Shown here one piece after another: positions 32,048-59,858 of a stretch of DNA of 64,000 bases. The stretch is from Moritella sp. 5 (lineage in GTDB: Bacteria; Pseudomonadota; Gammaproteobacteria; Enterobacterales; Moritellaceae), in contig NZ_CP056122.1 in assembly GCF_018219455.1 (NCBI RefSeq), forward strand, positions 1,612,001-1,676,000, in the 5' to 3' direction. Position 1 is the stretch's first letter; the number at the start of each line of letters is the position of its first letter. The notes beneath the pieces were generated by a model. That model was given only the letters and a program-made list of their open reading frames with translations. It did no database searches and was not told the DNA's origin. The position numbers and the translations under genes are program-made.

Positions 32048-32094
32048 ATTATTCGTTTTCATAAACCGCTATGTAATAAGCAATCTAGGTAATA

Positions 32095-35574: not shown

Positions 35575-35702
35575 TAGGTGATATACCGATAGGGTGTGAA
35601 ATTTAGGGTTATAAGGTAGGTATTTTGACTTTTTGCGTTTGATTTTATGAATGAATATAATGATTTATATTTATTTTTCAATCATTTAAAAGACACCATC
35701 TT

Positions 35703-38700
35703 ATGACACCTCGAAGTATTTTATCCATTGTTTTATTGCTTTTTTTTCTGGTTAGTTGTGGTGGTGGAGGTGGGGATTCTTCATCGAAGCCTGCTACGCG
35801 TAAAGTTGGCCATATTACTGGCGTTGTATTTGATGCAGCAATATCAAATTCAACAGTAAGCGCTTACGAGTTTAAAAACGGTCGGGTGGGTAAATTATTA
35901 GCTTCAACTAAAACTAATCAGAAAGGTCAATACAGTTTAGAAATACAGTCAGGGCCTATGCCATTGTATATCGAGTCTCAAGGTGGTGGGTATTTAGACC
36001 CTTATTCAGGGAAAATAGTTGAGAAGTCAAGTACAGGCGGACTACTCACATTAATTACATACATCAATTATTCCGAAGGTAACAATCATGACGCTATGAT
36101 TACCCCGCTGACTAATTTTGGTGCGGGATTGACTGAATATTTGATTAGATCGAATGGTGTCGATCCCAGTGTCGCGATTGATAATACAAACACTCAGCTT
36201 TTGAATATATACGGTTTTAATGTTTTTACTACTAAGCCATTGGATCTTACTTCTGAAGGGTCAAGTGGGGGAATTTCAGAAGGGCATGAATATGGTGCAT
36301 TGCTTACTGCATACTCTTCATATGCCTATGAAAAATTGAATGAATCTCAGTTAAAAGAAGAAACAGTCTATACCTCATATAACTTATCTGACATCCAGTA
36401 TCAGGATATCAGAGCTGATGGAACGTTAAATGGTAAAATTACTGATAAAAACGGCTTTGTAAAAAAAATATCATTTGGTATTCAACCAATTAGTGTGAGG
36501 ATATACACCAATCATTTAGCCCAGCATATGCTAAGGGTGGTCAATGATCCTAAGATAAATAAATCGGGTGTTTCAGCTGATCAGTTTAGTGATTTTTCAG
36601 AGCGATTAAACAAACCCGAAAGCGATATATTTACTGGTGCTAGTGATTACCCTATTAATGAAGATGCGCCTGTCGTTACGCAGTCATGTAGAGATGAAGG
36701 CGAAGCTTGTCTGAATAATATTTTATCATTGAAAGATAATATTTACTTCAATGTGGCTGATTATATAGGCATAAAAACAATAGATCCTATATTTGAATAT
36801 GAAGATTCAGATGGTCAATGGCAAGAAATTTCATATTGTAATTATAACGAAGAACGTTGCCAATTTGATTCATCATTTGTTATTGGTCAGCAAGCATGGG
36901 CTGCTTTTGTTAAAGTTGACACTGCGTTACTCGACCTTTTCGATGCAAAAAAAGCGAGAGTCAGATTCGAAGTTTCAGACGTATTTGATTTGGAAGACCG
37001 TGATCAATCAATCGAGTTTAAATGGGATAATGTAGGGCCTAGCATCAATATCGATGAGGAAAAGTCTCCGCTCGTTTATAATCCGAACGCTGATAATAGT
37101 TTATATAAGTTAGTCGGCACGGTTAAAAACAATATAAGTCTTTTATCTAGCCTTAGATTAACGATAGGTGGGGATGATCCTAAAACATTACCGTGCGATA
37201 AAAGTCTTATAGAGCCAGGGGTTTGTAATTTCAGCCAAGCTATAGATGATGTCGACTTTAAAGATAAAGGATCATTGATATTGAAAGTCGAGGCTGAAGA
37301 CGAGAATCATAATAAAAAACCATCAATTCATGTGGTATATACTGATACCGGAATACCTACGTATTTACCCAGTTTTTCTGATACGAAGATAAAATTTATT
37401 AATTATTCAACTGGTACTGCGCAGGAAGAAGAAGGCTATCTTGCTGAAGATAGTTTTACTCATGATGGTGAAAAAAAAGCCCTTAAAATTGATTTTAAAT
37501 ATGCCAAGAATGGCTTAAGTGCCATACCGGATAGTGAAAGTGTTAATTTTGAAAATTTTAACGTTAAGATATTGAAAGATAATGGTATACCTTACATCCA
37601 ATTTAAGGTAGGTGATACGCTAACTGAAAATACGGGGTCATCTGCTGAAAAATTGACATTAAAAGTTGAGTATAAGATCAAGGGTAACCTAGCCAACACA
37701 ATTTCCACTAAAGATAATCCTCATGTTATCCCACATCAACAAATAGATGTGGAGAACATTGAGTTTGGGAAAGTTCGCGACCTTATTTATTACATCCCAT
37801 TTACGAGGGATATATTTGGTCCTAAGTTTGAAGATGCAACAAAAGGCGATACGCAAAGTATTGAGGTCACTGTTAGTAATAAATCTGGTAACAGTTCTGA
37901 CGTATATAAGTATGCGTTTAAAAGTACATTTGAACTGCCTGTTGTTAAGGTTATGGCTCCCTTTCTTGATGCGGAGGCAAGCCTATTTAGATTTAACGAA
38001 AAAGGAACGTATGAACACGTAGCGAGTTGTGATTTAAAGCCTGAAAAATTAAGGGCTGGTGCGGATGAGCGGGCCCTAGATTTAGCCAGTTGTTCCATGT
38101 CAACGCCGTATGTAGGTGAGGTTCATAAAATATCATTGTCTGGTGATAGCGTTGAATTTCACCAGTGGAGTATAAATAAAGAAACAACTGTTAACTTGAA
38201 TCCCGATAAAAATTATACAAATTATCCGATTACCGGCTATGTCTATGTAAACGGCTCCAAAGATATTTACCTGTCAGAACTTTCAGTATTTCAATCTGGG
38301 TTCTTTGATTCTTTGTGGGCAGGTGATGATAAAGTAAATGTACAAGAACGTGCTAACGATATATTAAATAAGGTAAATGATATCTTTTTAAAGGGAAAAT
38401 CATTTTTTAATTTTAATCCCATAACTACAAGTTATGCAACCAATGAAGACTTAGATAAATTAGGTAAGGCAGCGGTTGTTCATACGTTATCTAATTCATA
38501 CCAACATCGCTTTATTGTTGAAGCTTTAGGTAAGATGTCAAAAGATCAGGGAATTGATAGTACTGTGTTGGCTAAGGCATTTTATGCCGATTTTGCAAGT
38601 GGTACTATTGATGGTAAAGACAGTGCCGATGCGCAAATAAAATATGGTAATAAGGACCTGACCCCAGAAACCTATCGAACTGTGTTAGCTCAATTTTATT

Positions 38701-41700: not shown

Positions 41701-44700
41701 AGTGGATACCGGAAGGAACCATAAAATTTAACTATAGGACTAAGTTAGGAGAGGAATCTGGATTATATGATGTAGTCGTCTCGCTAAATGATACTGAACT
41801 CTCATTAAAGAAAGAGGGTACAAGCAATGGTACGTTTACTAAATTTGTCAAGTGTAATGACGGTGACGAGTGGCTATGCAGCTCTTTTAAAGCGAAAATC
41901 CCCGAACTTGATAGCGCTAATAGACTTAATCTAAAGGTAACTGTTTTTGATTATTGGGAAAATGCTGGTAGTAATGGGGAAAACGGTATAACCCTTAACA
42001 TTGATAAAGATAAACCTGTCATTGCTGCCGAGCCTACGTCTATCACTAGAGTCGGAAATGATGTACTCATTAGGTTTGATATTCAAGATGAGAAAAGCCA
42101 AATAGCTAAGGTTCGTTATAGTTCTAATATTGGCAATGAGAATGTTGTTGTAGAGAAAACATCAGATTCAGACCGTTATTTAGTCATGGAAATTCCCTTT
42201 GACAAATTAGATAACAAGTCAGATATTTTAGTCAATATAACGGCAACAAATAAGGTTGGATTACAAGCGACTGGAAAGGTCAAGGTTGTATTAACCAAAC
42301 CACAGGTAGCTCTAACTTTACCTAAAACTAAATTGGTAAGAGATAGATTGTTGTTAGACAAAGATGCGCAACCATTCACGCTTAATGCGACTAACCCAGG
42401 CTCTAAAGTTCAAGCTGTTAGCTATACGATATCATTAGCGCTTGAGGATGACCTTGAAAATATTATAGCGTCTAAAACAGGGGGCATAAATGGAACGGAT
42501 ACGACAGTAAATAGCCTGTTAAATTTGGCGTCATCTGAACAAGGCTTATACAGATTAACGCTTAGTGTTATTGATAGTATGGGCAGAGAAATATCAAGTT
42601 TTTATCTGAATGAAAATAATGAACAAAAATTAGAATATGCTGGCGTTATTATTGATAGATATCCTCCTGAGATTAGCTCAATACAGACTAATGTAGAGCG
42701 TGTAGCACTCGATTCAGAAGGTCGATATAAATTTATTGTTAAAGCGAATATCAGTGATGTGCATTTAGATCATGACTTGGTCGGCGCTACACTGAATCGA
42801 GATGGCACTAGTTTTACTCCTGTTGAGAAGATAGTCGAACCAGACACAGACCAATATACCTTTGTATTTAGAGTTTTACCTGGCGAATACGATTTGACGA
42901 TAACGGCTACAGACTTTGCTGATAGGGTGACTACAACACCGAATCTAAACGTCGATATTAAGGCATTTGACGTCCCTGAGTTAACGCTAACCGCAGATGG
43001 AAAAACTGACATCACACTGGTTGGTGTGGAAGGTGAAGATGCTATTAAAAGAGCTACATTAGCATTCGACTTTTCGGAAGATATTTTCGATTTTGATATC
43101 TCAGATATCAAACTCGCTTCACCTATTTCTGGTGAAGTTGGCTTAGTCAGTGACTTAACTATGGACTCTGACAGCAGGCGTAAATGGACAGCTAATTATA
43201 CGATAACATCGGGTGTTGATGATGTTATTACGATTAAAGTTAATGATGGTTCTTTTGTTAACGACATTGGTATAGCTGGCTTGGGAGAGCAGATTGTCAT
43301 TAATATTGAAGGGTCCGCACCAGTTGCCAGCAATGTCGAGATTAAGCTTGCAGAAGAAACCACATCACCAACAGTGGGTGATGAACTGACGGGTGCTTAT
43401 GAATATTCGGATGTAGATGGTGATAAGAAAGATACCTCGGCATCTATCTATCAGTGGTACGCCGATGGTGAAGCAATAGACAAAGCAACGGACTTAACCT
43501 ATAGGCTGACAATATTAGATCACGATAAAAAAATCAGATTTTCAGTAACTCCAGTAGCCTTAACGGGAACGCAAAAGCAAGGTAAAGAAAGCTTTTCTAA
43601 AGATACTGAGGCAGTACTTGAATTAGTCGGTGAGCCTTTAGTCTTTGGTGGTAATGTAAAGATAACTATGGATGAAAGTTTTTCACGAGCAGTAGAGGGA
43701 GGTAATGGCGGCACTATCACATACAGTTCGTCGTTAGAAAGTGTGGCGACGGTAGATAGTCAGGGACTGGTCACGATGGTTGGTGTTGGTGATACGGTGA
43801 TCACGGCGACTGAAGAGCAAGGCGGTGATTTTTTTGCTCAAAAAGCGTCCTATAAACTGAAGGTGACGACGGGAACAGGCACACCTTTAGTACTTGATAC
43901 CAGCGATGTGAGTAAAACGATGGATGAGGGCTTAACCCGCGAAGCGACTGAGGGTAATGGTGGCACTATCACATACAGCTCGTCGTTAGAAAGTGTGGCG
44001 ACGGTAGATAGTCAGGGACTGGTCACGATGGTTGGTGTTGGTGATACGGTGATCACGGCGACTGAAGCCGCGACGGCGAACTACGATGAACAAGCAGCGC
44101 TTTATAATCTCAAGGTGACGACGGGAACAGGCACACCTTTAGTACTTGATACCAGCGATGTGAGTAAAACGATGGATGAGGGCTTAACCCGCGAAGCGAC
44201 TGAGGGTAATGGTGGCACTATCACATACAGCTCGTCGTTAGAAAGTGTGGCGACGGTTGATAGTCAGGGACTGGTCACGATGGTTGGTGTTGGTGATACG
44301 GTGATCACGGCGACTGAAGCCGCGACGGCGAACTACGATGAACAAGCAGCGCTTTATAACCTCAAGGTGACGACGGGAACAGGCACACCTTTAGTACTTG
44401 ATACCAGCGATGTGAGTAAAACGATGGATGAGGGCTTAACCCGCGAAGCGACTGAGGGTAATGGTGGCACTATCACATACAGCTCGTCGTTAGAAAGTGT
44501 GGCGACGGTTGATAGTCAGGGACTGGTCACGATGGTTGGTGTTGGTGATACGGTGATCACGGCGACTGAAGCCGCGACGGCGAACTACGATGAACAAGCA
44601 GCGCTTTATAACCTCAAGGTGACGACGGGAACAGGCACACCTTTAGTACTTGATACCAGCGATGTGAGTAAAACGATGGATGAGGGCTTAACCCGCGAAG

Positions 44701-47700: not shown

Positions 47701-50700
47701 TGGATGAGGGCTTAACCCGCGAAGCGACTGAGGGTAATGGTGGCACTATCACATACAGCTCGTCGTTAGAAAGTGTGGCGACGGTAGATAGTCAGGGACT
47801 GGTCACGATGGTTGGTGTTGGTGATACGGTGATCACGGCGACTGAAGCCGCGACGGCGAACTACGATGAACAAGCAGCGCTTTATAACCTCAAGGTGACG
47901 ACGGGAACAGGCACACCTTTAGTACTTGATACCAGCGATGTGAGTAAAACGATGGATGAGGGCTTAACCCGCGAAGCGACTGAGGGTAATGGTGGCACTA
48001 TCACATACAGCTCGTCGTTAGAAAGTGTGGCGACGGTAGATAGTCAGGGACTGGTCACGATGGTTGGTGTTGGTGATACGGTGATCACGGCGACTGAAGC
48101 CGCGACGGCGAACTACGATGAACAAGCAGCGCTTTATAATCTCAAGGTGACGACGGGAACAGGCACACCTTTAGTACTTGATACCAGCGATGTGAGTAAA
48201 ACGATGGATGAGGGCTTAACCCGCGAAGCGACTGAGGGTAATGGTGGCACTATCACATACAGCTCGTCGTTAGAAAGTGTGGCGACGGTAGATAGTCAGG
48301 GACTGGTCACGATGGTTGGTGTTGGTGATACGGTGATCACGGCGACTGAAGCCGCGACGGCGAACTACGATGAACAAGCAGCGCTTTATAATCTCAAGGT
48401 GACGACGGGAACAGGCACACCTTTAGTACTTGATACCAGCGATGTGAGTAAAACGATGGATGAGGGCTTAACCCGCGAAGCGACTGAGGGTAATGGTGGC
48501 ACTATCACATACAGCTCGTCGTTAGAAAGTGTGGCGACGGTAGATAGTCAGGGACTGGTCACGATGGTTGGTGTTGGTGATACGGTGATCACGGCGACTG
48601 AAGCCGCGACGGCGAACTACGATGAACAAGCAGCGCTTTATAACCTCAAGGTGACGACGGGAACAGGCACACCTTTAGTACTTGATACCAGCGATGTGAG
48701 TAAAACGATGGATGAGGGCTTAACCCGCGAAGCGACTGAGGGTAATGGTGGCACTATCACATACAGCTCGTCGTTAGAAAGTGTGGCGACGGTAGATAGT
48801 CAGGGACTGGTCACGATGGTTGGTGTTGGTGATACGGTGATCACGGCGACTGAAGCCGCGACGGCGAACTACGATGAACAAGCAGCGCTTTATAACCTCA
48901 AGGTGACGACGGGAACAGGCACACCTTTAGTACTTGATACCAGCGATGTGAGTAAAACGATGGATGAGGGCTTAACCCGCGAAGCGACTGAGGGTAATGG
49001 TGGCACTATCACATACAGCTCGTCGTTAGAAAGTGTGGCGACGGTAGATAGTCAGGGACTGGTCACGATGGTTGGTGTTGGTGATACGGTGATCACGGCG
49101 ACTGAAGCCGCGACGGCGAACTACGATGAACAAGCAGCGCTTTATAATCTCAAGGTGACGACGGGAACAGGCACACCTTTAGTACTTGATACCAGCGATG
49201 TGAGTAAAACGATGGATGAGGGCTTAACCCGCGAAGCGACTGAGGGTAATGGTGGCACTATCACATACAGCTCGTCGTTAGAAAGTGTGGCGACGGTAGA
49301 TAGTCAGGGACTGGTCACGATGGTTGGTGTTGGTGATACGGTGATCATGGCGACTGAAGCCGCGACGGCGAACTACGATGAACAAGCAGCGCTTTATAAT
49401 CTCAAGGTGACGACGGGAACAGGCACACCTTTAGTACTTGATACCAGCGATGTGAGTAAAACGATGGATGAGGGCTTAACCCGCGAAGCGACTGAGGGTA
49501 ATGGTGGCACTATCACATACAGCTCGTCGTTAGAAAGTGTGGCGACGGTAGATAGTCAGGGACTGGTCACGATGGTTGGTGTTGGTGATACGGTGATCAC
49601 GGCGACTGAAGCCGCGACGGCGAACTACGATGAACAAGCAGCGCTTTATAACCTCAAGGTGACGACGGGAACAGGCACACCTTTAGTACTTGATACCAGC
49701 GATGTGAGTAAAACGATGGATGAGGGCTTAACCCGCGAAGCGACTGAGGGTAATGGTGGCACTATCACATACAGCTCGTCGTTAGAAAGTGTGGCGACGG
49801 TAGATAGTCAGGGACTGGTCACGATGGTTGGTGTTGGTGATACGGTGATCACGGCGACTGAAGCCGCGACGGCGAACTACGATGAACAAGCAGCGCTTTA
49901 TAACCTCAAGGTGACGACGGGAACAGGCACACCTTTAGTACTTGATACCAGCGATGTGAGTAAAACGATGGATGAGGGCTTAACCCGCGAAGCGACTGAG
50001 GGTAATGGTGGCACTATCACATACAGCTCGTCGTTAGAAAGTGTGGCGACGGTAGATAGTCAGGGACTGGTCACGATGGTTGGTGTTGGTGATACGGTGA
50101 TCACGGCGACTGAAGCCGCGACGGCGAACTACGATGAACAAGCAGCGCTTTATAACCTCAAGGTGACGACGGGAACAGGCACACCTTTAGTACTTGATAC
50201 CAGCGATGTGAGTAAAACGATGGATGAGGGCTTAACCCGCGAAGCGACTGAGGGTAATGGTGGCACTATCACATACAGCTCGTCGTTAGAAAGTGTGGCG
50301 ACGGTAGATAGTCAGGGACTGGTCACGATGGTTGGTGTTGGTGATACGGTGATCACGGCGACTGAAGCCGCGACGGCGAACTACGATGAACAAGCAGCGC
50401 TTTATAATCTCAAGGTGACGACGGGAACAGGCACACCTTTAGTACTTGATACCAGCGATGTGAGTAAAACGATGGATGAGGGCTTAACCCGCGAAGCGAC
50501 TGAGGGTAATGGTGGCACTATCACATACAGCTCGTCGTTAGAAAGTGTGGCGACGGTAGATAGTCAGGGACTGGTCACGATGGTTGGTGTTGGTGATACG
50601 GTGATCACGGCGACTGAAGCCGCGACGGCGAACTACGATGAACAAGCAGCGCTTTATAATCTCAAGGTGACGACGGGAACAGGCACACCTTTAGTACTTG

Positions 50701-53700
50701 ATACCAGCGATGTGAGTAAAACGATGGATGAGGGCTTAACCCGCGAAGCGACTGAGGGTAATGGTGGCACTATCACATACAGCTCGTCGTTAGAAAGTGT
50801 GGCGACGGTAGATAGTCAGGGACTGGTCACGATGGTTGGTGTTGGTGATACGGTGATCACGGCGACTGAAGCCGCGACGGCGAACTACGATGAACAAGCA
50901 GCGCTTTATAACCTCAAGGTGACGACGGGAACAGGCACACCTTTAGTACTTGATACCAGCGATGTGAGTAAAACGATGGATGAGGGCTTAACCCGCGAAG
51001 CGACTGAGGGTAATGGTGGCACTATCACATACAGCTCGTCGTTAGAAAGTGTGGCGACGGTAGATAGTCAGGGACTGGTCACGATGGTTGGTGTTGGTGA
51101 TACGGTGATCACGGCGACTGAAGCCGCGACGGCGAACTACGATGAACAAGCAGCGCTTTATAACCTCAAGGTGACGACGGGAACAGGCACACCTTTAGTA
51201 CTTGATACCAGCGATGTGAGTAAAACGATGGATGAGGGCTTAACCCGCGAAGCGACTGAGGGTAATGGTGGCACTATCACATACAGCTCGTCGTTAGAAA
51301 GTGTGGCGACGGTAGATAGTCAGGGACTGGTCACGATGGTTGGTGTTGGTGATACGGTGATCACGGCGACTGAAGCCGCGACGGCGAACTACGATGAACA
51401 AGCAGCGCTTTATAATCTCAAGGTGACGACGGGAACAGGCACACCTTTAGTACTTGATACCAGCGATGTGAGTAAAACGATGGATGAGGGCTTAACCCGC
51501 GAAGCGACTGAGGGTAATGGTGGCACTATCACATACAGCTCGTCGTTAGAAAGTGTGGCGACGGTAGATAGTCAGGGACTGGTCACGATGGTTGGTGTTG
51601 GTGATACGGTGATCATGGCGACTGAAGCCGCGACGGCGAACTACGATGAACAAGCAGCGCTTTATAATCTCAAGGTGACGACGGGAACAGGCACACCTTT
51701 AGTACTTGATACCAGCGATGTGAGTAAAACGATGGATGAGGGCTTAACCCGCGAAGCGACTGAGGGTAATGGTGGCACTATCACATACAGCTCGTCGTTA
51801 GAAAGTGTGGCGACGGTAGATAGTCAGGGACTGGTCACGATGGTTGGTGTTGGTGATACGGTGATCACGGCGACTGAAGCCGCGACGGCGAACTACGATG
51901 AACAAGCAGCGCTTTATAACCTCAAGGTGACGACGGGAACAGGCACACCTTTAGTACTTGATACCAGCGATGTGAGTAAAACGATGGATGAGGGCTTAAC
52001 CCGCGAAGCGACTGAGGGTAATGGTGGCACTATCACATACAGCTCGTCGTTAGAAAGTGTGGCGACGGTAGATAGTCAGGGACTGGTCACGATGGTTGGT
52101 GTTGGTGATACGGTGATCACGGCGACTGAAGCCGCGACGGCGAACTACGATGAACAAGCAGCGCTTTATAACCTCAAGGTGACGACGGGAACAGGCACAC
52201 CTTTAGTACTTGATACCAGCGATGTGAGTAAAACGATGGATGAGGGCTTAACCCGCGAAGCGACTGAGGGTAATGGTGGCACTATCACATACAGCTCGTC
52301 GTTAGAAAGTGTGGCGACGGTAGATAGTCAGGGACTGGTCACGATGGTTGGTGTTGGTGATACGGTGATCACGGCGACTGAAGCCGCGACGGCGAACTAC
52401 GATGAACAAGCAGCGCTTTATAACCTCAAGGTGACGACGGGAACAGGCACACCTTTAGTACTTGATACCAGCGATGTGAGTAAAACGATGGATGAGGGCT
52501 TAACCCGCGAAGCGACTGAGGGTAATGGTGGCACTATCACATACAGCTCGTCGTTAGAAAGTGTGGCGACGGTAGATAGTCAGGGACTGGTCACGATGGT
52601 TGGTGTTGGTGATACGGTGATCACGGCGACTGAAGCCGCGACGGCGAACTACGATGAACAAGCAGCGCTTTATAACCTCAAGGTGACGACGGGAACAGGC
52701 ACACCTTTAGTACTTGATACCAGCGATGTGAGTAAAACGATGGATGAGGGCTTAACCCGCGAAGCGACTGAGGGTAATGGTGGCACTATCACATACAGCT
52801 CGTCGTTAGAAAGTGTGGCGACGGTTGATAGTCAGGGACTGGTCACGATGGTTGGTGTTGGTGATACGGTGATCACGGCGACTGAAGCCGCGACGGCGAA
52901 CTACGATGAACAAGCAGCGCTTTATAACCTCAAGGTGACGACGGGAACAGGCACACCTTTAGTACTTGATACCAGCGATGTGAGTAAAACGATGGATGAG
53001 GGCTTAACCCGCGAAGCGACTGAGGGTAATGGTGGCACTATCACATACAGCTCGTCGTTAGAAAGTGTGGCGACGGTAGATAGTCAGGGACTGGTCACGA
53101 TGGTTGGTGTTGGTGATACGGTGATCACGGCGACTGAAGCCGCGACGGCGAACTACGATGAACAAGCAGCGCTTTATAATCTCAAGGTGACGACGGGAAC
53201 AGGCACACCTTTAGTACTTGATACCAGCGATGTGAGTAAAACGATGGATGAGGGCTTAACCCGCGAAGCGACTGAGGGTAATGGTGGCACTATCACATAC
53301 AGCTCGTCGTTAGAAAGTGTGGCGACGGTAGATAGTCAGGGACTGGTCACGATGGTTGGTGTTGGTGATACGGTGATCACGGCGACTGAAGCCGCGACGG
53401 CGAACTACGATGAACAAGCAGCGCTTTATAATCTCAAGGTGACGACGGGAACAGGCACACCTTTAGTACTTGATACCAGCGATGTGAGTAAAACGATGGA
53501 TGAGGGCTTAACCCGCGAAGCGACTGAGGGTAATGGTGGCACTATCACATACAGCTCGTCGTTAGAAAGTGTGGCGACGGTAGATAGTCAGGGACTGGTC
53601 ACGATGGTTGGTGTTGGTGATACGGTGATCACGGCGACTGAAGCCGCGACGGCGAACTACGATGAACAAGCAGCGCTTTATAATCTCAAGGTGACGACGG

Positions 53701-56700
53701 GAACAGGCACACCTTTAGTACTTGATACCAGCGATGTGAGTAAAACGATGGATGAGGGCTTAACCCGCGAAGCGACTGAGGGTAATGGTGGCACTATCAC
53801 ATACAGCTCGTCGTTAGAAAGTGTGGCGACGGTTGATAGTCAGGGACTGGTCACGATGGTTGGTGTTGGTGATACGGTGATCACGGCGACTGAAGCCGCG
53901 ACGGCGAACTACGATGAACAAGCAGCGCTTTATAATCTCAAGGTGACGACGGGAACAGGCACACCTTTAGTACTTGATACCAGCGATGTGAGTAAAACGA
54001 TGGATGAGGGCTTAACCCGCGAAGCGACTGAGGGTAATGGTGGCACTATCACATACAGCTCGTCGTTAGAAAGTGTGGCGACGGTAGATAGTCAGGGACT
54101 GGTCACGATGGTTGGTGTTGGTGATACGGTGATCATAGCGACTGAAGCCGCGACGGCGAACTACGAGCAACAAGCAGCGCTTTATAACCTCAAGGTGACG
54201 ACGGGAACAGGCACACCTTTAGTACTTGATACCAGCGATGTGAGTAAAACGATGGATGAGGGCTTAACCCGCGAAGCGACTGAGGGTAATGGTGGCACTA
54301 TCACATACAGCTCGTCGTTAGAAAGTGTGGCGACGGTAGATAGTCAGGGACTGGTCACGATGGTTGGTGTTGGTGATACGGTGATCACGGCGACTGAAGC
54401 CGCGACGGCGAACTACGATGAACAAGCAGCGCTTTATAACCTCAAGGTGACGACGGGAACAGGCACACCTTTAGTACTTGATACCAGCGATGTGAGTAAA
54501 ACGATGGATGAGGGCTTAACCCGCGAAGCGACTGAGGGTAATGGTGGCACTATCACATACAGCTCGTCGTTAGAAAGTGTGGCGACGGTAGATAGTCAGG
54601 GACTGGTCACGATGGTTGGTGTTGGTGATACGGTGATCACGGCGACTGAAGCCGCGACGGCGAACTACGATGAACAAGCAGCGCTTTATAATCTCAAGGT
54701 GACGACGGGAACAGGCACACCTTTAGTACTTGATACCAGCGATGTGAGTAAAACGATGGATGAGGGCTTAACCCGCGAAGCGACTGAGGGTAATGGTGGC
54801 ACTATCACATACAGCTCGTCGTTAGAAAGTGTGGCGACGGTAGATAGTCAGGGACTGGTCACGATGGTTGGTGTTGGTGATACGGTGATCACGGCGACTG
54901 AAGCCGCGACGGCGAACTACGATGAACAAGCAGCGCTTTATAACCTCAAGGTGACGACGGGAACAGGCACACCTTTAGTACTTGATACCAGCGATGTGAG
55001 TAAAACGATGGATGAGGGCTTAACCCGCGAAGCGACTGAGGGTAATGGTGGCACTATCACATACAGCTCGTCGTTAGAAAGTGTGGCGACGGTAGATAGT
55101 CAGGGACTGGTCACGATGGTTGGTGTTGGTGATACGGTGATCACGGCGACTGAAGCCGCGACGGCGAACTACGATGAACAAGCAGCGCTTTATAATCTCA
55201 AGGTGACGACGGGAACAGGCACACCTTTAGTACTTGATACCAGCGATGTGAGTAAAACGATGGATGAGGGCTTAACCCGCGAAGCGACTGAGGGTAATGG
55301 TGGCACTATCACATACAGCTCGTCGTTAGAAAGTGTGGCGACGGTAGATAGTCAGGGACTGGTCACGATGGTTGGTGTTGGTGATACGGTGATCACGGCG
55401 ACTGAAGCCGCGACGGCGAACTACGATGAACAAGCAGCGCTTTATAATCTCAAGGTGACGACGGGAACAGGCACACCTTTAGTACTTGATACCAGCGATG
55501 TGAGTAAAACGATGGATGAGGGCTTAACCCGCGAAGCGACTGAGGGTAATGGTGGCACTATCACATACAGCTCGTCGTTAGAAAGTGTGGCGACGGTAGA
55601 TAGTCAGGGACTGGTCACGATGGTTGGTGTTGGTGATACGGTGATCACGGCGACTGAAGCCGCGACGGCGAACTACGATGAACAAGCAGCGCTTTATAAT
55701 CTCAAGGTGACGACGGGAACAGGCACACCTTTAGTACTTGATACCAGCGATGTGAGTAAAACGATGGATGAGGGCTTAACCCGCGAAGCGACTGAGGGTA
55801 ATGGTGGCACTATCACATACAGCTCGTCGTTAGAAAGTGTGGCGACGGTAGATAGTCAGGGACTGGTCACGATGGTTGGTGTTGGTGATACGGTGATCAC
55901 GGCGACTGAAGCCGCGACGGCGAACTACGATGAACAAGCAGCGCTTTATAACCTCAAGGTGACGACGGGAACAGGCACACCTTTAGTACTTGATACCAGC
56001 GATGTGAGTAAAACGATGGATGAGGGCTTAACCCGCGAAGCGACTGAGGGTAATGGTGGCACTATCACATACAGCTCGTCGTTAGAAAGTGTGGCGACGG
56101 TAGATAGTCAGGGACTGGTCACGATGGTTGGTGTTGGTGATACGGTGATCACGGCGACTGAAGCCGCGACGGCGAACTACGATGAACAAGCAGCGCTTTA
56201 TAACCTCAAGGTGACGACGGGAACAGGCACACCTTTAGTACTTGATACCAGCGATGTGAGTAAAACGATGGATGAGGGCTTAACCCGCGAAGCGACTGAG
56301 GGTAATGGTGGCACTATCACATACAGCTCGTCGTTAGAAAGTGTGGCGACGGTAGATAGTCAGGGACTGGTCACGATGGTTGGTGTTGGTGATACGGTGA
56401 TCACGGCGACTGAAGCCGCGACGGCGAACTACGATGAACAAGCAGCGCTTTATAACCTCAAGGTGACGACGGGAACAGGCACACCTTTAGTACTTGATAC
56501 CAGCGATGTGAGTAAAACGATGGATGAGGGCTTAACCCGCGAAGCGACTGAGGGTAATGGTGGCACTATCACATACAGCTCGTCGTTAGAAAGTGTGGCG
56601 ACGGTTGATAGTCAGGGACTGGTCACGATGGTTGGTGTTGGTGATACGGTGATCACGGCGACTGAAGCCGCGACGGCGAACTACGATGAACAAGCAGCGC

Positions 56701-56732
56701 TTTATAATCTCAAGGTGACGACGGGAAGTTGA
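35703..56732 (+). CDS. giant 7009-residue lipoprotein with 51 tandem Big_2-like Ig repeats
   Basis: A signal peptide ending in LVSC-GGGGG predicts a lipid-anchored Cys19 followed by a Gly/Ser linker. Next come a carboxypeptidase-regulatory-like segment (GHITGVVFDAAISNSTVSAY...) and an MITPLTNFGAGL block. Then about 2500 residues contain several Ig/cadherin-like domains (recurring D..PP.V and D..GP.I linkers, for example DKNPPEVTV, DKEGPVVTL, DIQGPTITL). A YQWYADGEAI domain precedes the array at about residue 2620. From residue 2727 to the end there are 51 units of 84 residues. Each resembles a Big_2 fold (ITYSSSLESVATVDSQGLV...GDTVITAT). The protein ends inside the last unit (KVTTGS) with no C-terminal anchor. 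The ribosome-binding site is weak. Probably a surface fibre or adhesin/biofilm protein (inference); neighbours do not include a dedicated secretion gene. Confidence 0.93.
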   Translation: MTPRSILSIVLLLFFLVSCGGGGGDSSSKPATRKVGHITGVVFDAAISNSTVSAYEFKNGRVGKLLASTKTNQKGQYSLEIQSGPMPLYIESQGGGYLDPYSGKIVEKSSTGGLLTLITYINYSEGNNHDAMITPLTNFGAGLTEYLIRSNGVDPSVAIDNTNTQLLNIYGFNVFTTKPLDLTSEGSSGGISEGHEYGALLTAYSSYAYEKLNESQLKEETVYTSYNLSDIQYQDIRADGTLNGKITDKNGFVKKISFGIQPISVRIYTNHLAQHMLRVVNDPKINKSGVSADQFSDFSERLNKPESDIFTGASDYPINEDAPVVTQSCRDEGEACLNNILSLKDNIYFNVADYIGIKTIDPIFEYEDSDGQWQEISYCNYNEERCQFDSSFVIGQQAWAAFVKVDTALLDLFDAKKARVRFEVSDVFDLEDRDQSIEFKWDNVGPSINIDEEKSPLVYNPNADNSLYKLVGTVKNNISLLSSLRLTIGGDDPKTLPCDKSLIEPGVCNFSQAIDDVDFKDKGSLILKVEAEDENHNKKPSIHVVYTDTGIPTYLPSFSDTKIKFINYSTGTAQEEEGYLAEDSFTHDGEKKALKIDFKYAKNGLSAIPDSESVNFENFNVKILKDNGIPYIQFKVGDTLTENTGSSAEKLTLKVEYKIKGNLANTISTKDNPHVIPHQQIDVENIEFGKVRDLIYYIPFTRDIFGPKFEDATKGDTQSIEVTVSNKSGNSSDVYKYAFKSTFELPVVKVMAPFLDAEASLFRFNEKGTYEHVASCDLKPEKLRAGADERALDLASCSMSTPYVGEVHKISLSGDSVEFHQWSINKETTVNLNPDKNYTNYPITGYVYVNGSKDIYLSELSVFQSGFFDSLWAGDDKVNVQERANDILNKVNDIFLKGKSFFNFNPITTSYATNEDLDKLGKAAVVHTLSNSYQHRFIVEALGKMSKDQGIDSTVLAKAFYADFASGTIDGKDSADAQIKYGNKDLTPETYRTVLAQFYYDFVRNNFENIPDYVVMRYANTLSTANPLLGDKALFGDDHGASIDKNPPEVTVVIGNEDNFYNPDSKNPNPKSWYIKDKISVVVTISDPSGISDSPAPKFEFLWGDDASEATNPLESIVLKDVESTAYKKSYEFEFNSVSEDYPTIKRMDMLVSVSDTVGNSYDDSTPHITSFIVDNSPPSYTHTNQNVADEGEDADVDHEKTYISLAVGKDQQKLSFAILDIVGEKEGKRQVKFTQLPKSLGVSKTIEYSEMITDGNEFSIVLCGKACADGETNRHYLEDGKWELQIASEDKLGNVISFGDPAVQKFYVYIDSTAPHVESNTVENPDVIGANKNWNVTSFITYGNETHRSEPGPISMKLSSQNFGRHELGTCDVKSPDEIACLIVKEGSTLVELNPEKLTHGEILKFDISAKDSAFPANEGQGKRFFKVDKEGPVVTLENPAVVAEPSGGQDLTPDVMPIVGRNFSVHILKITDDSELGEISLWQKLDNGDLKKIIEEKSADNKTFYVSDTDSAKIEINEGNNRINLVVRAKDEHGFSSDTAVPVFIYDIQGPTITLKNYQKDKYYVPGYSFGFNIKDLNDDSIDKESIKYWASESDISGDGVSIGIEESIKTQFYKNFNLRIEAQDIRGNLSTENFKIKVDSQPPTGNLIIHQGGNELKPGTVVSKAGPLSLTLKDVSSASGVSDITALVKRSGESEGSSFRFHQNVGSTSWASTLDLTTDGDYSIDIKMYNSAITDQDDGNVPGTIQVNISVKRGGHELTLVAPEDFANHKAGKSLTVEFSTDDTSGLKKLECWIREDWKSDEAPEDTIAPYVSYEGINSPICNFSNFTEDLPKDLSKNLVLITRTEGDNEAKVTQKFSFKMIDVTAPVILDREIKLLTENVFFDVTAEVKKLTLGIKVEDGLSGIDKAKTPTLRTYNNHGGLVPTGDPAYDGDNKVTYFFTQDYVNIINSASPTQTVKLDGVKDNVGNIIAGENSNITLIVPGVDPQVKIDDLADEQWIPEGTIKFNYRTKLGEESGLYDVVVSLNDTELSLKKEGTSNGTFTKFVKCNDGDEWLCSSFKAKIPELDSANRLNLKVTVFDYWENAGSNGENGITLNIDKDKPVIAAEPTSITRVGNDVLIRFDIQDEKSQIAKVRYSSNIGNENVVVEKTSDSDRYLVMEIPFDKLDNKSDILVNITATNKVGLQATGKVKVVLTKPQVALTLPKTKLVRDRLLLDKDAQPFTLNATNPGSKVQAVSYTISLALEDDLENIIASKTGGINGTDTTVNSLLNLASSEQGLYRLTLSVIDSMGREISSFYLNENNEQKLEYAGVIIDRYPPEISSIQTNVERVALDSEGRYKFIVKANISDVHLDHDLVGATLNRDGTSFTPVEKIVEPDTDQYTFVFRVLPGEYDLTITATDFADRVTTTPNLNVDIKAFDVPELTLTADGKTDITLVGVEGEDAIKRATLAFDFSEDIFDFDISDIKLASPISGEVGLVSDLTMDSDSRRKWTANYTITSGVDDVITIKVNDGSFVNDIGIAGLGEQIVINIEGSAPVASNVEIKLAEETTSPTVGDELTGAYEYSDVDGDKKDTSASIYQWYADGEAIDKATDLTYRLTILDHDKKIRFSVTPVALTGTQKQGKESFSKDTEAVLELVGEPLVFGGNVKITMDESFSRAVEGGNGGTITYSSSLESVATVDSQGLVTMVGVGDTVITATEEQGGDFFAQKASYKLKVTTGTGTPLVLDTSDVSKTMDEGLTREATEGNGGTITYSSSLESVATVDSQGLVTMVGVGDTVITATEAATANYDEQAALYNLKVTTGTGTPLVLDTSDVSKTMDEGLTREATEGNGGTITYSSSLESVATVDSQGLVTMVGVGDTVITATEAATANYDEQAALYNLKVTTGTGTPLVLDTSDVSKTMDEGLTREATEGNGGTITYSSSLESVATVDSQGLVTMVGVGDTVITATEAATANYDEQAALYNLKVTTGTGTPLVLDTSDVSKTMDEGLTREATEGNGGTITYSSSLESVATVDSQGLVTMVGVGDTVITATEAATANYDEQAALYNLKVTTGTGTPLVLDTSDVSKTMDEGLTREATEGNGGTITYSSSLESVATVDSQGLVTMVGVGDTVITATEAATANYDEQAALYNLKVTTGTGTPLVLDTSDVSKTMDEGLTREATEGNGGTITYSSSLESVATVDSQGLVTMVGVGDTVITATEAATANYDEQAALYNLKVTTGTGTPLVLDTSDVSKTMDEGLTREATEGNGGTITYSSSLESVATVDSQGLVTMVGVGDTVITATEAATANYDEQAALYNLKVTTGTGTPLVLDTSDVSKTMDEGLTREATEGNGGTITYSSSLESVATVDSQGLVTMVGVGDTVITATEAATANYDEQAALYNLKVTTGTGTPLVLDTSDVSKTMDEGLTREATEGNGGTITYSSSLESVATVDSQGLVTMVGVGDTVITATEAATANYDEQAALYNLKVTTGTGTPLVLDTSDVSKTMDEGLTREATEGNGGTITYSSSLESVATVDSQGLVTMVGVGDTVITATEAATANYDEQAALYNLKVTTGTGTPLVLDTSDVSKTMDEGLTREATEGNGGTITYSSSLESVATVDSQGLVTMVGVGDTVITATEAATANYDEQAALYNLKVTTGTGTPLVLDTSDVSKTMDEGLTREATEGNGGTITYSSSLESVATVDSQGLVTMVGVGDTVITATEAATANYDEQAALYNLKVTTGTGTPLVLDTSDVSKTMDEGLTREATEGNGGTITYSSSLESVATVDSQGLVTMVGVGDTVIMATEAATANYDEQAALYNLKVTTGTGTPLVLDTSDVSKTMDEGLTREATEGNGGTITYSSSLESVATVDSQGLVTMVGVGDTVITATEAATANYDEQAALYNLKVTTGTGTPLVLDTSDVSKTMDEGLTREATEGNGGTITYSSSLESVATVDSQGLVTMVGVGDTVITATEAATANYDEQAALYNLKVTTGTGTPLVLDTSDVSKTMDEGLTREATEGNGGTITYSSSLESVATVDSQGLVTMVGVGDTVITATEAATANYDEQAALYNLKVTTGTGTPLVLDTSDVSKTMDEGLTREATEGNGGTITYSSSLESVATVDSQGLVTMVGVGDTVITATEAATANYDEQAALYNLKVTTGTGTPLVLDTSDVSKTMDEGLTREATEGNGGTITYSSSLESVATVDSQGLVTMVGVGDTVITATEAATANYDEQAALYNLKVTTGTGTPLVLDTSDVSKTMDEGLTREATEGNGGTITYSSSLESVATVDSQGLVTMVGVGDTVITATEAATANYDEQAALYNLKVTTGTGTPLVLDTSDVSKTMDEGLTREATEGNGGTITYSSSLESVATVDSQGLVTMVGVGDTVITATEAATANYDEQAALYNLKVTTGTGTPLVLDTSDVSKTMDEGLTREATEGNGGTITYSSSLESVATVDSQGLVTMVGVGDTVITATEAATANYDEQAALYNLKVTTGTGTPLVLDTSDVSKTMDEGLTREATEGNGGTITYSSSLESVATVDSQGLVTMVGVGDTVIMATEAATANYDEQAALYNLKVTTGTGTPLVLDTSDVSKTMDEGLTREATEGNGGTITYSSSLESVATVDSQGLVTMVGVGDTVITATEAATANYDEQAALYNLKVTTGTGTPLVLDTSDVSKTMDEGLTREATEGNGGTITYSSSLESVATVDSQGLVTMVGVGDTVITATEAATANYDEQAALYNLKVTTGTGTPLVLDTSDVSKTMDEGLTREATEGNGGTITYSSSLESVATVDSQGLVTMVGVGDTVITATEAATANYDEQAALYNLKVTTGTGTPLVLDTSDVSKTMDEGLTREATEGNGGTITYSSSLESVATVDSQGLVTMVGVGDTVITATEAATANYDEQAALYNLKVTTGTGTPLVLDTSDVSKTMDEGLTREATEGNGGTITYSSSLESVATVDSQGLVTMVGVGDTVITATEAATANYDEQAALYNLKVTTGTGTPLVLDTSDVSKTMDEGLTREATEGNGGTITYSSSLESVATVDSQGLVTMVGVGDTVITATEAATANYDEQAALYNLKVTTGTGTPLVLDTSDVSKTMDEGLTREATEGNGGTITYSSSLESVATVDSQGLVTMVGVGDTVITATEAATANYDEQAALYNLKVTTGTGTPLVLDTSDVSKTMDEGLTREATEGNGGTITYSSSLESVATVDSQGLVTMVGVGDTVITATEAATANYDEQAALYNLKVTTGTGTPLVLDTSDVSKTMDEGLTREATEGNGGTITYSSSLESVATVDSQGLVTMVGVGDTVIMATEAATANYDEQAALYNLKVTTGTGTPLVLDTSDVSKTMDEGLTREATEGNGGTITYSSSLESVATVDSQGLVTMVGVGDTVITATEAATANYDEQAALYNLKVTTGTGTPLVLDTSDVSKTMDEGLTREATEGNGGTITYSSSLESVATVDSQGLVTMVGVGDTVITATEAATANYDEQAALYNLKVTTGTGTPLVLDTSDVSKTMDEGLTREATEGNGGTITYSSSLESVATVDSQGLVTMVGVGDTVITATEAATANYDEQAALYNLKVTTGTGTPLVLDTSDVSKTMDEGLTREATEGNGGTITYSSSLESVATVDSQGLVTMVGVGDTVITATEAATANYDEQAALYNLKVTTGTGTPLVLDTSDVSKTMDEGLTREATEGNGGTITYSSSLESVATVDSQGLVTMVGVGDTVITATEAATANYDEQAALYNLKVTTGTGTPLVLDTSDVSKTMDEGLTREATEGNGGTITYSSSLESVATVDSQGLVTMVGVGDTVITATEAATANYDEQAALYNLKVTTGTGTPLVLDTSDVSKTMDEGLTREATEGNGGTITYSSSLESVATVDSQGLVTMVGVGDTVITATEAATANYDEQAALYNLKVTTGTGTPLVLDTSDVSKTMDEGLTREATEGNGGTITYSSSLESVATVDSQGLVTMVGVGDTVITATEAATANYDEQAALYNLKVTTGTGTPLVLDTSDVSKTMDEGLTREATEGNGGTITYSSSLESVATVDSQGLVTMVGVGDTVITATEAATANYDEQAALYNLKVTTGTGTPLVLDTSDVSKTMDEGLTREATEGNGGTITYSSSLESVATVDSQGLVTMVGVGDTVIIATEAATANYEQQAALYNLKVTTGTGTPLVLDTSDVSKTMDEGLTREATEGNGGTITYSSSLESVATVDSQGLVTMVGVGDTVITATEAATANYDEQAALYNLKVTTGTGTPLVLDTSDVSKTMDEGLTREATEGNGGTITYSSSLESVATVDSQGLVTMVGVGDTVITATEAATANYDEQAALYNLKVTTGTGTPLVLDTSDVSKTMDEGLTREATEGNGGTITYSSSLESVATVDSQGLVTMVGVGDTVITATEAATANYDEQAALYNLKVTTGTGTPLVLDTSDVSKTMDEGLTREATEGNGGTITYSSSLESVATVDSQGLVTMVGVGDTVITATEAATANYDEQAALYNLKVTTGTGTPLVLDTSDVSKTMDEGLTREATEGNGGTITYSSSLESVATVDSQGLVTMVGVGDTVITATEAATANYDEQAALYNLKVTTGTGTPLVLDTSDVSKTMDEGLTREATEGNGGTITYSSSLESVATVDSQGLVTMVGVGDTVITATEAATANYDEQAALYNLKVTTGTGTPLVLDTSDVSKTMDEGLTREATEGNGGTITYSSSLESVATVDSQGLVTMVGVGDTVITATEAATANYDEQAALYNLKVTTGTGTPLVLDTSDVSKTMDEGLTREATEGNGGTITYSSSLESVATVDSQGLVTMVGVGDTVITATEAATANYDEQAALYNLKVTTGTGTPLVLDTSDVSKTMDEGLTREATEGNGGTITYSSSLESVATVDSQGLVTMVGVGDTVITATEAATANYDEQAALYNLKVTTGTGTPLVLDTSDVSKTMDEGLTREATEGNGGTITYSSSLESVATVDSQGLVTMVGVGDTVITATEAATANYDEQAALYNLKVTTGS
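43632..43880 (+). repeat. divergent founder-like repeat unit 0
   Basis: An 83-residue unit just before the array. Its ends differ from the array consensus (EPLVFGGNVKITMDESFSRA and EEQGGDFFAQKASYK), but its middle (about 43701-43818) is almost identical to the array at DNA level. It marks the boundary of homogenisation. Confidence 0.85.
43881..56729 (+). repeat. 51 x 252-bp in-frame tandem array
   Basis: The invariant codon AAG at 43860 recurs at 56712, a distance of 12852 bp, exactly 51 x 252. Units show no length change. I found only four kinds of variation. Two are silent: GTA/GTT before GATAGTC (GTT in units 2, 3, 36, 40 and 51) and AAT/AAC before CTC. Two change residues: ATC ACG to ATC ATG (T to M, units 13, 22, 31), and unit 41 with ATC ATA and GAG CAA. 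The array is about half G+C, clearly higher than the A+T-rich 5' part of the gene. Confidence 0.97.
46653..52448 (+). repeat. higher-order 9-unit (2268-bp) repeat inside the array
   Basis: The ATCATG variant recurs at 47076, 49344 and 51612, each 2268 bp (9 units) apart. The AAT/AAC pattern of units 13-21 (T C C C T T C C T) is the same in units 22-30, and units 31-34 start it again. So unit k matches unit k+9 for k = 12 to 25. Confidence 0.88.
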
Positions 56733-56860: not shown

Positions 56861-56940
56861 TGTAAACCAAATCGTTACTAAGTCTAATCAACTTAAATCA
56901 CTGCAACTTATTTAATCATTAGGTTGTGGAGATACAATGC
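56861..56940 (+). repeat. leader of the 576-aa gene, duplicated at 60188-60268
   Basis: The 80 bp before and across ATG 56937 (TGTAAACCAAATCG...GGTTGTGGAGATACAATG) match 60188-60268 with roughly one change in seven. Includes the ribosome-binding site. Confidence 0.85.
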
Positions 56941-58724: not shown

Positions 58725-59858
58725 ATGAAAAACCACCAAGGCCTTGCTTTTCTCTTTGGGTTGTCAATATTGTTACTGCAAGGTTGTGGTCAGCCTGCAT
58801 CAGTAGCAAATAAAGCAGAAGCTAAACCTGAGCCTGTCGCAGAAGTTGTTACCGAAAAACGAGATTACGTAACCCAGCATAACTACATTAGCTATGATGA
58901 CGAAAGTTACCCGTTGGGTATGCCCCAGTACAATGTTTATAAAGCTAGAGAATGGCCGCGTGAAGACTTGGACAATGCAGCGTCATACGACCAACCTCGC
59001 TTGCAGTTCTTCTGGGATAATGGCAATTCACGAAAAATGAAAAATGATACCTATGAAAAGCGTGAAAAAATCTGGAGCATGAAGCTTGATGGGACCGATT
59101 TACGCTTAGTCACAGACGATTTTATCGGAGCAAGTATAGGAACATTACGCCGTTCACCAAACAATCGTTATTTAGCTTATGCTCATCATGCTGCCGATGG
59201 TCTCTATAAAGTGTTATTTGATTTAAAAACCCAAGAGTCAATAATATTAGGAAAAGGAATGAGGTTGCCCATTTTAGTCTGGGCCGAAGACAGCAGTTAC
59301 CTGTATTACTCCAATGGGCGTCGATATATTAAGTATACTCTGGCGACGAAAAAGAAAGAGGCTGTGGATATCGATTTATCACCGCAGACCGTGATATATG
59401 ACGGTCTGCGTGTTGTTGTATTAGATCGTTGCGTGAATGTATACAGAGAATCCGACAATAAGAAACTTTATGGCATTGCAACTATGCAAGATAAGTCAGT
59501 CCCTAATCAAACTGCTATCTATAAAGACAAAGCTATCAGTGCTAACGGCAAATATGTATGGGTTAAAAATCGTTATAATAAAGTATTTATTGATGTCGAG
59601 AATAAGACTTGGCTTGCTGTTGATAATCAGGGCACGGATAAGTGGCAGTTTAATCATACTGGCAATATTAGTGTGAACGGAGATGAGTATCAAGAAGGAT
59701 CGGGGCGAATTAGTATGTCTTCTCAGGATAAACAAGGAAATAAGCTAGCCTATACCCATTGGTCAGTTATTAACACAGGGCGTAGTGCTCGACTTTCTAA
59801 TGTTTACAATGCATTTGCCAATGGTGGTCGTTTCTTTATTGAGGCTGCTAAGTCATGA
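58725..59858 (+). CDS. beta-propeller (PD40/TolB-like) lipoprotein, paralogue A
   Basis: 377 residues. Signal peptide with lipobox LLQG-Cys21, then a linker (KAEAKPEPVAEVV). The body has blades of the WD40-like PD40 kind: KIWSMKLDGTDLRLVTDDF followed by IGTLRRSPNNRYLAYA, later LPILVWAEDSSYLYYSNG and AISANGKYVWVKN. Periplasmic, lipid-anchored. It is about 80 percent identical by eye to the paralogue at 60399; the two differ most around residues 225-265. Its place next to large putative effectors suggests an immunity or receptor role (inference). Confidence 0.88.
   Translation: MKNHQGLAFLFGLSILLLQGCGQPASVANKAEAKPEPVAEVVTEKRDYVTQHNYISYDDESYPLGMPQYNVYKAREWPREDLDNAASYDQPRLQFFWDNGNSRKMKNDTYEKREKIWSMKLDGTDLRLVTDDFIGASIGTLRRSPNNRYLAYAHHAADGLYKVLFDLKTQESIILGKGMRLPILVWAEDSSYLYYSNGRRYIKYTLATKKKEAVDIDLSPQTVIYDGLRVVVLDRCVNVYRESDNKKLYGIATMQDKSVPNQTAIYKDKAISANGKYVWVKNRYNKVFIDVENKTWLAVDNQGTDKWQFNHTGNISVNGDEYQEGSGRISMSSQDKQGNKLAYTHWSVINTGRSARLSNVYNAFANGGRFFIEAAKS

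What the first reader, a model, noticed from the sequence alone, without database searches (positions are those of the whole stretch)
35703..56732. One 21-kb gene: a lipid-anchored protein of 7009 residues with 51 near-identical Ig repeats
Seen: an unbroken frame, a lipobox (LVSC) at the N-terminus, and exactly 51 units of 252 bp without one indel. Known: Big_2-type domains build extended surface fibres in adhesins, but those usually are secreted by type I or autotransporter routes. Inferred: here the N-terminus is the lipid anchor, so the repeat tail (4283 residues) could reach far from the outer membrane as a tether or fibre. I know of few bacterial lipoproteins of this size.
Basis: partly seen in the sequence, partly recalled or inferred. 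Interest (0 to 1): 0.8.

Follow-up and report, generated by a model that had tools for sequence, protein, structure and literature searches.

The report
Giant repeat-tailed T6SS-linked surface lipoprotein
This gene for a predicted lipid-anchored protein of 7009 residues with 52 copies of one Ig-like domain is real and belongs to a known family, TasL, which in a related marine bacterium brings neighbouring cells into contact so that a toxin-injecting weapon can hit them; here its tail is unusually long and built from a different repeat.

Summary
Confirmed: one open frame, 35703-56732 (7009 aa, about 736 kDa), with a lipobox (LVSC, Cys19) and a C-terminal array of 52 Ig-like (Big_2) domains, 46 of them identical in protein sequence. 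Its first ~2550 residues are homologous to proteins found with the same T6SS in Vibrionaceae: very probably the TasL family, a surface lipoprotein that Vibrio fischeri needs for contact with specific prey (link to TasL itself indirect). In 329 Vibrionaceae genomes, head and this ClpV are both in 52, only one of them in 6. The tail is not conserved: absent in a same-genus relative at the same locus, 3-13 copies of another, ~200-aa unit in 11 Vibrionaceae proteins, 52 Big_2 domains only here among 26 proteins. Between the two genus members flanking genes are 95-99% identical, the head 50%, the neighbouring cassette 35-55%: a hypervariable insert in a conserved weapon locus. Most likely role: a length-variable tether for prey contact. 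Surface display, prey binding and exact copy number are inferred, not shown.

The parts
35703..56732 (+). tasL-family gene, 7009 aa, about 736 kDa
   Evidence: single open frame; mass computed
35703..35759 (+). lipoprotein signal peptide up to Cys19 (LVSC|GG, no Asp at +2)
   Evidence: sequence; lipobox in 26 of 26 proteins, window included
35757..43634 (+). conserved head, residues 19-2644: CarboxypepD_reg-like start (below Pfam's cut-off), Big_12 at residues 2449-2530, ZirU-like region at 2536-2629 (below NCBIfam's cut-off)
   Evidence: Pfam, NCBIfam; homology over about residues 1-2550 in Vibrionaceae
43635..56729 (+). tail: 52 Big_2 Ig-like domains of 84 aa (first 83, last 82), residues 2645-7009
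46656..50183 (+). domains 13-26, whose pattern of variants recurs nine domains later at 48924-52451 (domains 22-35): trace of a 9-unit (2268-bp) block duplication, or of a misassembly
   Evidence: 14-unit match at lag 9; 0 of 500 shuffles of unit order reached it
35620..35702 (+). upstream block conserved with the G009 orthologue, with a TATAAT-like hexamer; no sigma-54-like site
   Evidence: alignment; pattern scan with up to 2 mismatches
33352..35346 (+). uvrB, conserved left flank (98% identical to G009)
56937..58667 (+). 576-aa protein, no Pfam family up to E 1; conserved N-terminal part, variable C-terminal part
58725..59858 (+). 377-aa predicted lipoprotein (LLLQGC), immunity-like by position (inference)
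60399..61529 (+). 376-aa paralogue of the preceding gene
61529..64000 (+). start of a 1600-aa protein with an OmpA domain (runs on past the window); then VasH-like regulator, ClpV, Hcp, VgrG and other T6SS genes outside the window

Best explanation
This is a TasL-family protein: an outer-membrane lipoprotein, exported by Sec and lipidated at Cys19, displayed on the cell surface and used with the adjacent T6SS to hold particular neighbouring bacteria close enough to be hit. The ~2600-residue head, next to the membrane, is the family's conserved part. The 52-domain tail is a recently expanded, strongly acidic chain of Ig-like domains that extends the protein's reach, perhaps by about 200 nm at roughly 4 nm per domain (recalled figure), and may itself bind with many weak contacts since nothing lies beyond it. 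The tail is a lineage-specific, variable module and the head is polymorphic, as expected of a factor that sets which cells are gripped and from how far. Shown here: frame, lipobox, repeats, homology, T6SS synteny and co-occurrence, tail variability, head divergence against conserved flanks. Inferred: surface location, prey contact, effect of tail length. The route to the surface is unknown; the genome has a type II secretion secretin, a possible route.
For: T6SS genes beside the gene: ClpV, sigma-54 regulator, Hcp; VgrG, TssA, TssB/VipA, TssC/VipB, TssF, TssG, TssM/IcmF, kinase. Head homologous over ~2550 aa to proteins near the same T6SS in G009 (50%) and in 24 Vibrionaceae proteins (31-37%). 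Named hits: Vibrio qingdaonensis, V. profundi, V. tasmaniensis. In two genomes of genus g84 the homologue has the layout published for V. fischeri tasL: TssA and a divergent M23-peptidase gene on one side, a convergent gene and then a PAAR-like gene on the other (PMC9040878 section 13; PMC9972734 and PMC9515649 passages). Co-occurrence of head and this ClpV: both in 52, head only 4, ClpV only 2, neither 271 of 329 genomes; in the genus the closely related ClpV and the long head are in the same 2 of 11 genomes. TasL is needed in V. fischeri for killing in hydrogel and promotes contact (PMC9040878: abstract, sections 5, 6, 13), and homologues in Moritella T6SS clusters are mentioned there. Flanks 95-99% identical to G009, head 50%. 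GspD present.
Against: The V. fischeri TasL sequence itself could not be fetched; the link runs through g84 genomes whose name is inferred. Published TasL has five fibronectin-III-like repeats; this tail is Big_2. In V. fischeri the neighbouring genes are divergent and convergent; here uvrB and the 576-aa gene lie on the same strand. The sigma-54-like site found upstream of hcp is not found upstream of this gene, so shared control by VasH is not supported. 4 of 26 proteins, all with a stop codon, have almost no tail past the aligned head (37-69 aa in G463, G472 and G469; 2 aa in G009), so the tail is not needed for the gene to persist. Several Vibrionaceae genomes hold a second match over only the first ~1185 residues of the head, whose surroundings I did not examine. 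TssE, TssJ, TssK and TssL were not looked for. Surface exposure and prey binding are untested; no usable structure model.
Confidence: 0.74

Rival explanations
1. A general surface adhesin or biofilm fibre (self-aggregation, particles or an animal host) that merely sits beside the T6SS.
For: Near-identical Ig arrays are typical of such adhesins, e.g. MpAFP with about 120 copies and Acinetobacter BAP (abstracts in the listing). The unit is Big_2, found in intimins.
Against: Head and this ClpV are together in 52 genomes against 6 with only one of them; in the genus the long head and this ClpV are present or absent together. TasL in V. fischeri acts on contact for T6SS killing (PMC9040878, sections 5, 6, 13).
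Confidence: 0.16
2. A lipoprotein kept in the periplasm, where the repeats would be a structural filler or envelope spacer.
For: A lipobox without an inner-membrane retention signal places it in the outer membrane but does not show that it is flipped to the outside. No surface-lipoprotein translocator was found (PF04575, whose control genomes also gave nothing, so inconclusive).
Against: 52 Ig domains plus a 2600-residue head would be far longer than the periplasm is wide (recalled dimensions). A tasL mutant of V. fischeri loses contact between cells (PMC9040878).
Confidence: 0.07
3. The copy number is wrong: the array was inflated or collapsed in assembly and the true protein is of another length.
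For: A 14-unit stretch recurs with a 9-unit offset, which a misassembly could also create. Of 26 proteins, 3 are cut by contig ends in or near the tail and 2 hold runs of N, so such tails are hard to assemble. The near-identical units offer little variation to anchor reads.
Against: Single-contig genome. Units carry distinct variants in a non-random order rather than one collapsed consensus. The frame is intact through all 52 domains.
Confidence: 0.12
4. A decoy coat: the acidic repeats shield the cell from phages or rival T6SSs rather than grip prey.
For: The tail is very acidic (pI 4.05, about -461 at pH 7) and would form a dense surface layer if abundant.
Against: No direct evidence; the published phenotype of TasL is gain of contact, not its prevention (PMC9040878).
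Confidence: 0.03

Closest known systems
TasL of Vibrio fischeri (type VI secretion associated lipoprotein; PMC9040878)
   Same: Very large predicted outer-membrane lipoprotein in a T6SS gene cluster, with a repeated C-terminal part; homologues reported in Vibrio and Moritella T6SS clusters. The head here is homologous to genes lying at the published tasL position in genus g84.
   Different: About twice the size (736 against >380 kDa). Tail of 52 Big_2 domains instead of five fibronectin-III-like repeats. Placed between uvrB and an effector-like cassette at the VasH end, not between TssA and PAAR; neighbours on the same strand.
MpAFP, ice adhesin of Marinomonas primoryensis (PMC4083281, abstract in search listing only)
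   Same: Near-identical Ig-like domains in a very long array as an extender (roughly 120 copies of 104 residues).
   Different: MpAFP is a type I-secreted RTX protein (recalled) with an ice-binding part; here there is a lipid anchor, only one GGxGxD match (right after the lipobox Cys) and no domain beyond the array.
Intimin/invasin Big_2 domains
   Same: The 84-aa unit matches Big_2 and, weakly, intimin chains in the PDB (E about 8e-5).
   Different: Intimin is held by an outer-membrane beta-barrel with few Ig domains (recalled); here a lipid anchor and 52 domains.
1620-aa Big_2/RCC1 protein of G003 (same genus)
   Same: 13 matches to the same unit, mostly at 252-bp spacing, 49-55% identical, behind a lipobox-like start.
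   Different: Unrelated N-terminus by eye, RCC1 repeats after the array; no T6SS genes recognised by eye among the ORFs of at least 200 aa in the 19 kb looked at.

Membership tests
TasL | Homology over the long head (~2550 residues) to genes at the published tasL position | tested here: met
   34-35% identity over about residues 12-2550 to G394 and G396, whose loci show TssA - M23-type gene - tasL - convergent gene - PAAR-like (by position; Pfam for all three named genes in G394, for TssA and PAAR in G396). For G398 only the TssA side was seen, by eye. The ES401 sequence itself was not available, so the link is indirect.
TasL | Encoded in a T6SS gene cluster | tested here: met
   ClpV, VasH-like, Hcp, VgrG, TssA/B/C/F/G/M
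TasL | Predicted lipoprotein without a Lol avoidance signal (no Asp at +2) | tested here: met
   LVSC|GG; 26 of 26 proteins (window included) have a lipobox, +2 is Gly in 25 and Asn in 1
TasL | Very large protein (>380 kDa in V. fischeri) | tested here: met
   735.6 kDa
TasL | C-terminal beta-sandwich repeats (described for V. fischeri as five fibronectin-III-like; descriptive rather than defining, since 4 of 26 proteins lack a tail) | tested here: met
   52 Ig-like repeats, but of Big_2 type, not fibronectin-III-like
TasL | Expressed with the T6SS; mediates heterotypic cell contact and prey choice | not testable with these tools
   No expression or phenotype data for this organism
RTX/LapA-type type I-secreted adhesins | No N-terminal signal peptide; C-terminal RTX secretion signal (recalled) | tested here: not met
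   N-terminal lipobox; only one GGxGxD match, right after the lipobox Cys
Intimin/invasin (type Ve) adhesins | N-terminal outer-membrane beta-barrel (recalled) | tested here: not met
   No barrel family found by Pfam or NCBIfam in residues 1-2666
T6SS effector | Cytoplasmic protein without Sec signal, loaded on the T6SS (recalled) | tested here: not met
   Lipoprotein signal peptide in 26 of 26 proteins, window included

The most novel reading that the evidence does not exclude
The locus is a coupled 'grip and poison' module: TasL, the 576-aa protein, its small lipoproteins and the OmpA-type protein are replaced or diversified together inside an otherwise near-identical T6SS locus, so that prey choice and toxin kit change as a unit; and the tail is a fast-changing length dial, gained, lost and rebuilt from unrelated Ig-type repeats in different lineages, that sets how far the cell reaches for prey.
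Probability: 0.3. Interest if true: 0.75.

Novelty: new variant of a known kind. Interest (0 to 1): 0.56.

Why it matters
How a contact-dependent weapon chooses its victims is an open question; TasL is one of few factors known (to my knowledge) to decide it, and the V. fischeri authors say its size and repeats blocked complementation (PMC9040878, section 13). This locus offers a natural comparison: the same T6SS in two members of one genus, one with a tail-less TasL and one with 52 extra Ig domains. It separates head from tail, shows that the tail is a replaceable module in the family, and makes the question 'does tail length set reach, and does the head set specificity?' directly testable.

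Tried and rejected
The profile of the head (three sequences) against PDB sequences found nothing at E 0.01. Sigma-54 scan: none upstream of this gene, and fewer matches in the window (22) than in shuffles (mean 32.9); one 1-mismatch site upstream of hcp, but L002 as a whole holds no more matches than shuffles (6 against a mean of 9.0); none in the 154 bp held upstream of the G009 gene. Surface-lipoprotein translocator PF04575: no match, but no control genome matched either, so inconclusive. Type I-secreted or RTX adhesin, type Ve adhesin and T6SS effector were considered and rejected (see membership test). The RIX-effector paper (passages) has no occurrence of OmpA or lipoprotein. Pfam hits on two Vibrionaceae tails are mostly repeat-inflated and were not used beyond 'Ig-like'. 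Literature searches. None of the listings shows a TasL of this size or a comparison of TasL tails, but the supplementary tables of PMC9040878 (homologue lists) could not be read, so this very gene may be listed there.

Full report
CHECK. The frame 35703-56732 (+) is a single open frame of 7009 codons with LVSC|GGGGG at residues 16-24. The 252-bp array is 99% matched with no indels. In domain phase it holds 52 Ig-like domains from residue 2645 to the stop: 46 identical in protein, 3 with one change, 1 with three changes, a first domain with diverged edges and a last one cut by the stop. Six nucleotide positions vary in domains 2-51. The order of variants is not random: domains 13-26 recur as 22-35, a 14-unit match at lag 9 that 0 of 500 shuffles of the unit order reached (mean longest 6.0, largest 10). 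The simplest reading is growth by duplication of a 9-unit, 2268-bp block; a misassembly could leave the same trace. The genome is one contig of 4.99 Mb.

WHERE IT SITS. To the left is uvrB, and beyond it a tRNA-Asn array and a GGDEF/EAL gene. To the right follow, on the same strand, a 576-aa protein without a Pfam family, two paralogous 377/376-aa predicted lipoproteins and a 1600-aa protein with an OmpA domain. After these come a sigma-54 activator (VasH-like) and ClpV on the other strand, then Hcp, VgrG, a kinase, TssA, TssB, TssC, TssF, TssG and TssM. TssE, TssJ, TssK and TssL were not looked for.

RELATIVES. Searching 11 genomes of the genus gives matches in 4 at E 0.001, but in G003 and G004 only over 75 residues near position 2600; the long head is in 2, the window's own and G009. 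G009 has the same locus (uvrB, head, 572 aa, 370 aa, 1593 aa, VasH, ClpV), but its protein is 2613 aa and ends just before the place where the first Big_2 domain begins here; the 84-aa unit has no match in G009. In 394 genomes of the order (drawn evenly from a larger group), 9 had any match at E 1e-10; apart from the two above, only G296 matched over nearly the whole head. In 329 genomes of G296's family, 56 match at E 1e-20; most over the whole head, some in pieces or over only the first ~1185 residues, and several have a second match of the latter kind that I did not examine. One scan of named genome contigs gave 3 loci: Vibrio qingdaonensis, V. profundi and V. tasmaniensis.

TAILS. I examined 26 proteins: window, G009, G296, the three named, and 20 from regions chosen by me for contig length, not at random. 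Five of the 26 are cut by contig ends (L049, L050, G426) or hold runs of N (G398, G443). Of the other 21, counting from the end of the local alignment to residues 1-2666, four have a tail of at most 69 aa, three have 85-231 aa and fourteen have 388-4368 aa. In 11 Vibrionaceae proteins picked for a repeat signal, the tail is 3.2-12.8 copies of a 192-202-aa unit, 68-97% alike. The 84-aa unit has no match better than E 0.07 in the other 25 proteins. The window's protein is the longest: the next is 5365 aa, and no other match has a longer open frame. Heads 87-97% identical carry tails of different length in 7 of 7 pairs looked at, so the tail changes faster than the head; several of these genomes are drafts, but G566/G514 and G602/G506 have only 2-3 contigs. 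A tree of the 26 heads joins window and G009 (support 1.0).

IDENTITY. I recalled TasL from the literature and then tested it. PMC9040878 (abstract, passages, sections 5, 6 and 13 read) describes a >380-kDa putative outer-membrane lipoprotein in the V. fischeri T6SS2 island. A disruption mutant fails to kill ES114 in hydrogel but kills on surfaces; the protein promotes contact with some strains and not others; it is predicted to reach up to 70 nm; homologues are reported in Vibrio and Moritella T6SS clusters. The paper says its upstream gene is divergent and its downstream gene convergent. PMC9972734 (passages) lists PAAR 15490, TasL 15520 and TssA 15530; PMC9515649 (passages) says 3 to 11 genes lie between the PAAR-like gene and tasL. 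In two genomes of genus g84 I find this layout: ImpA_N (TssA), a divergent M23-peptidase gene, the head homologue, a convergent 162-aa gene, and a PAAR-like gene after 3 (L086) or 5 (L097) ORFs of at least 150 aa. The window's organism is probably a Moritella, also inference.

CO-OCCURRENCE. Orthologues of this ClpV (E up to 1e-280) are in 54 of the 329 genomes. Head and ClpV are both in 52, head only in 4 (G423, G424, G469, G624), ClpV only in 2 (G501, G563), neither in 271; Fisher p 3.7e-53, not corrected for shared ancestry. In one of the four, G469, a ClpV-like sequence (by eye) lies beside the gene in two overlapping frames. In the genus, the closely related ClpV (96% identical) is in the same 2 of 11 genomes as the long head; the other 9 have only ClpB/ClpV relatives at 48% or less.

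HYPERVARIABLE INSERT. Between window and G009 the flanks are nearly the same: GGDEF/EAL 95%, uvrB 98%, VasH 99%, ClpV 96%. Between them the TasL head is 50%, the 576-aa protein 55% (91% in its first 100 aligned residues, then 38-66%), the small lipoproteins 41-42% and the OmpA-type protein 36%. Fast divergence or exchange by recombination would both give this; either suits a recognition protein with its effector kit, and neither is proven. This rests on one pair of genomes.

HOW IT WORKS. Shown: lipoprotein signal in 26 of 26 (25 with Gly, 1 with Asn at +2), T6SS linkage, conserved head, variable tail. Inferred: outer-membrane placement, flipping to the surface, binding of prey, tail as reach. 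The array runs to the stop, so it does not lift a tip domain; either the head binds while the tail shields or spaces, or the repeats bind by many weak contacts. The tail is strongly acidic (pI 4.05, -9 per unit, no Cys); calcium promotes aggregation and T6SS2 killing in V. fischeri (PMC9769598, passages), so calcium-dependent stiffening is worth a test. At about 4 nm per Ig domain (recalled) the tail would add roughly 200 nm. A possible route to the surface is type II secretion: GspD is present (E 5e-168). Control by VasH is not supported at this gene, while a sigma-54-like site with one mismatch lies upstream of hcp, in a stretch whose total of matches is no higher than chance; a different upstream block is conserved with G009.

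VERDICT. A real and striking member of a known family, with an extreme and differently built tail: a new variant of a known kind. What is new here rests: one conserved head with unrelated repeat tails, and a hypervariable insert in a conserved T6SS locus.

Noticed in passing
window 31074-32586: Eleven tandem tRNA-Asn(gtt) genes on the - strand, mostly in ~123-bp near-identical units; G009 has five at the same place (L042 3084-3968).
   Followed up: partly
window 56937-58667 and homologues in 14 other loci: The 576-aa protein family beside tasL is 50-79% identical on average in its first 300 alignment columns and 22-50% after that (15 sequences); its downstream genes differ between loci, many of them lipoprotein-like by eye: looks like a polymorphic T6SS effector/immunity or adaptor module without a Pfam family.
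   Followed up: partly
L043 and L048 (G296): The ~577-aa gene (once as a 344-aa frame) and small lipoprotein genes are repeated beside tasL, as in arrays of alternative effector/immunity pairs.
   Followed up: no
L045 10170-15032 (G003): A 1620-aa lipoprotein-like protein with 13 matches to the same kind of Big_2 unit (mostly 252-bp spacing, 49-55% identical), ending in RCC1 repeats: the repeat module is shared between seemingly unrelated proteins of the genus.
   Followed up: partly
C-termini of tasL homologues: 13 of 26 end in -AA; the window's does not. Meaning unknown.
   Followed up: no
Vibrionaceae genomes (e.g. G526, G527, G585, G586, G606): Second proteins match only the first ~1185 residues of the head; possibly a shorter relative of TasL. 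Surroundings not examined.
   Followed up: no
window 25238-27697: An RnfC-like frame (name by eye) on the - strand carries a 105-bp Ala-rich tandem repeat (25356-25938) near its C-terminus.
   Followed up: no
L002 15029-15044: A sigma-54-like site with one mismatch lies upstream of hcp, which begins at 15126.
   Followed up: partly
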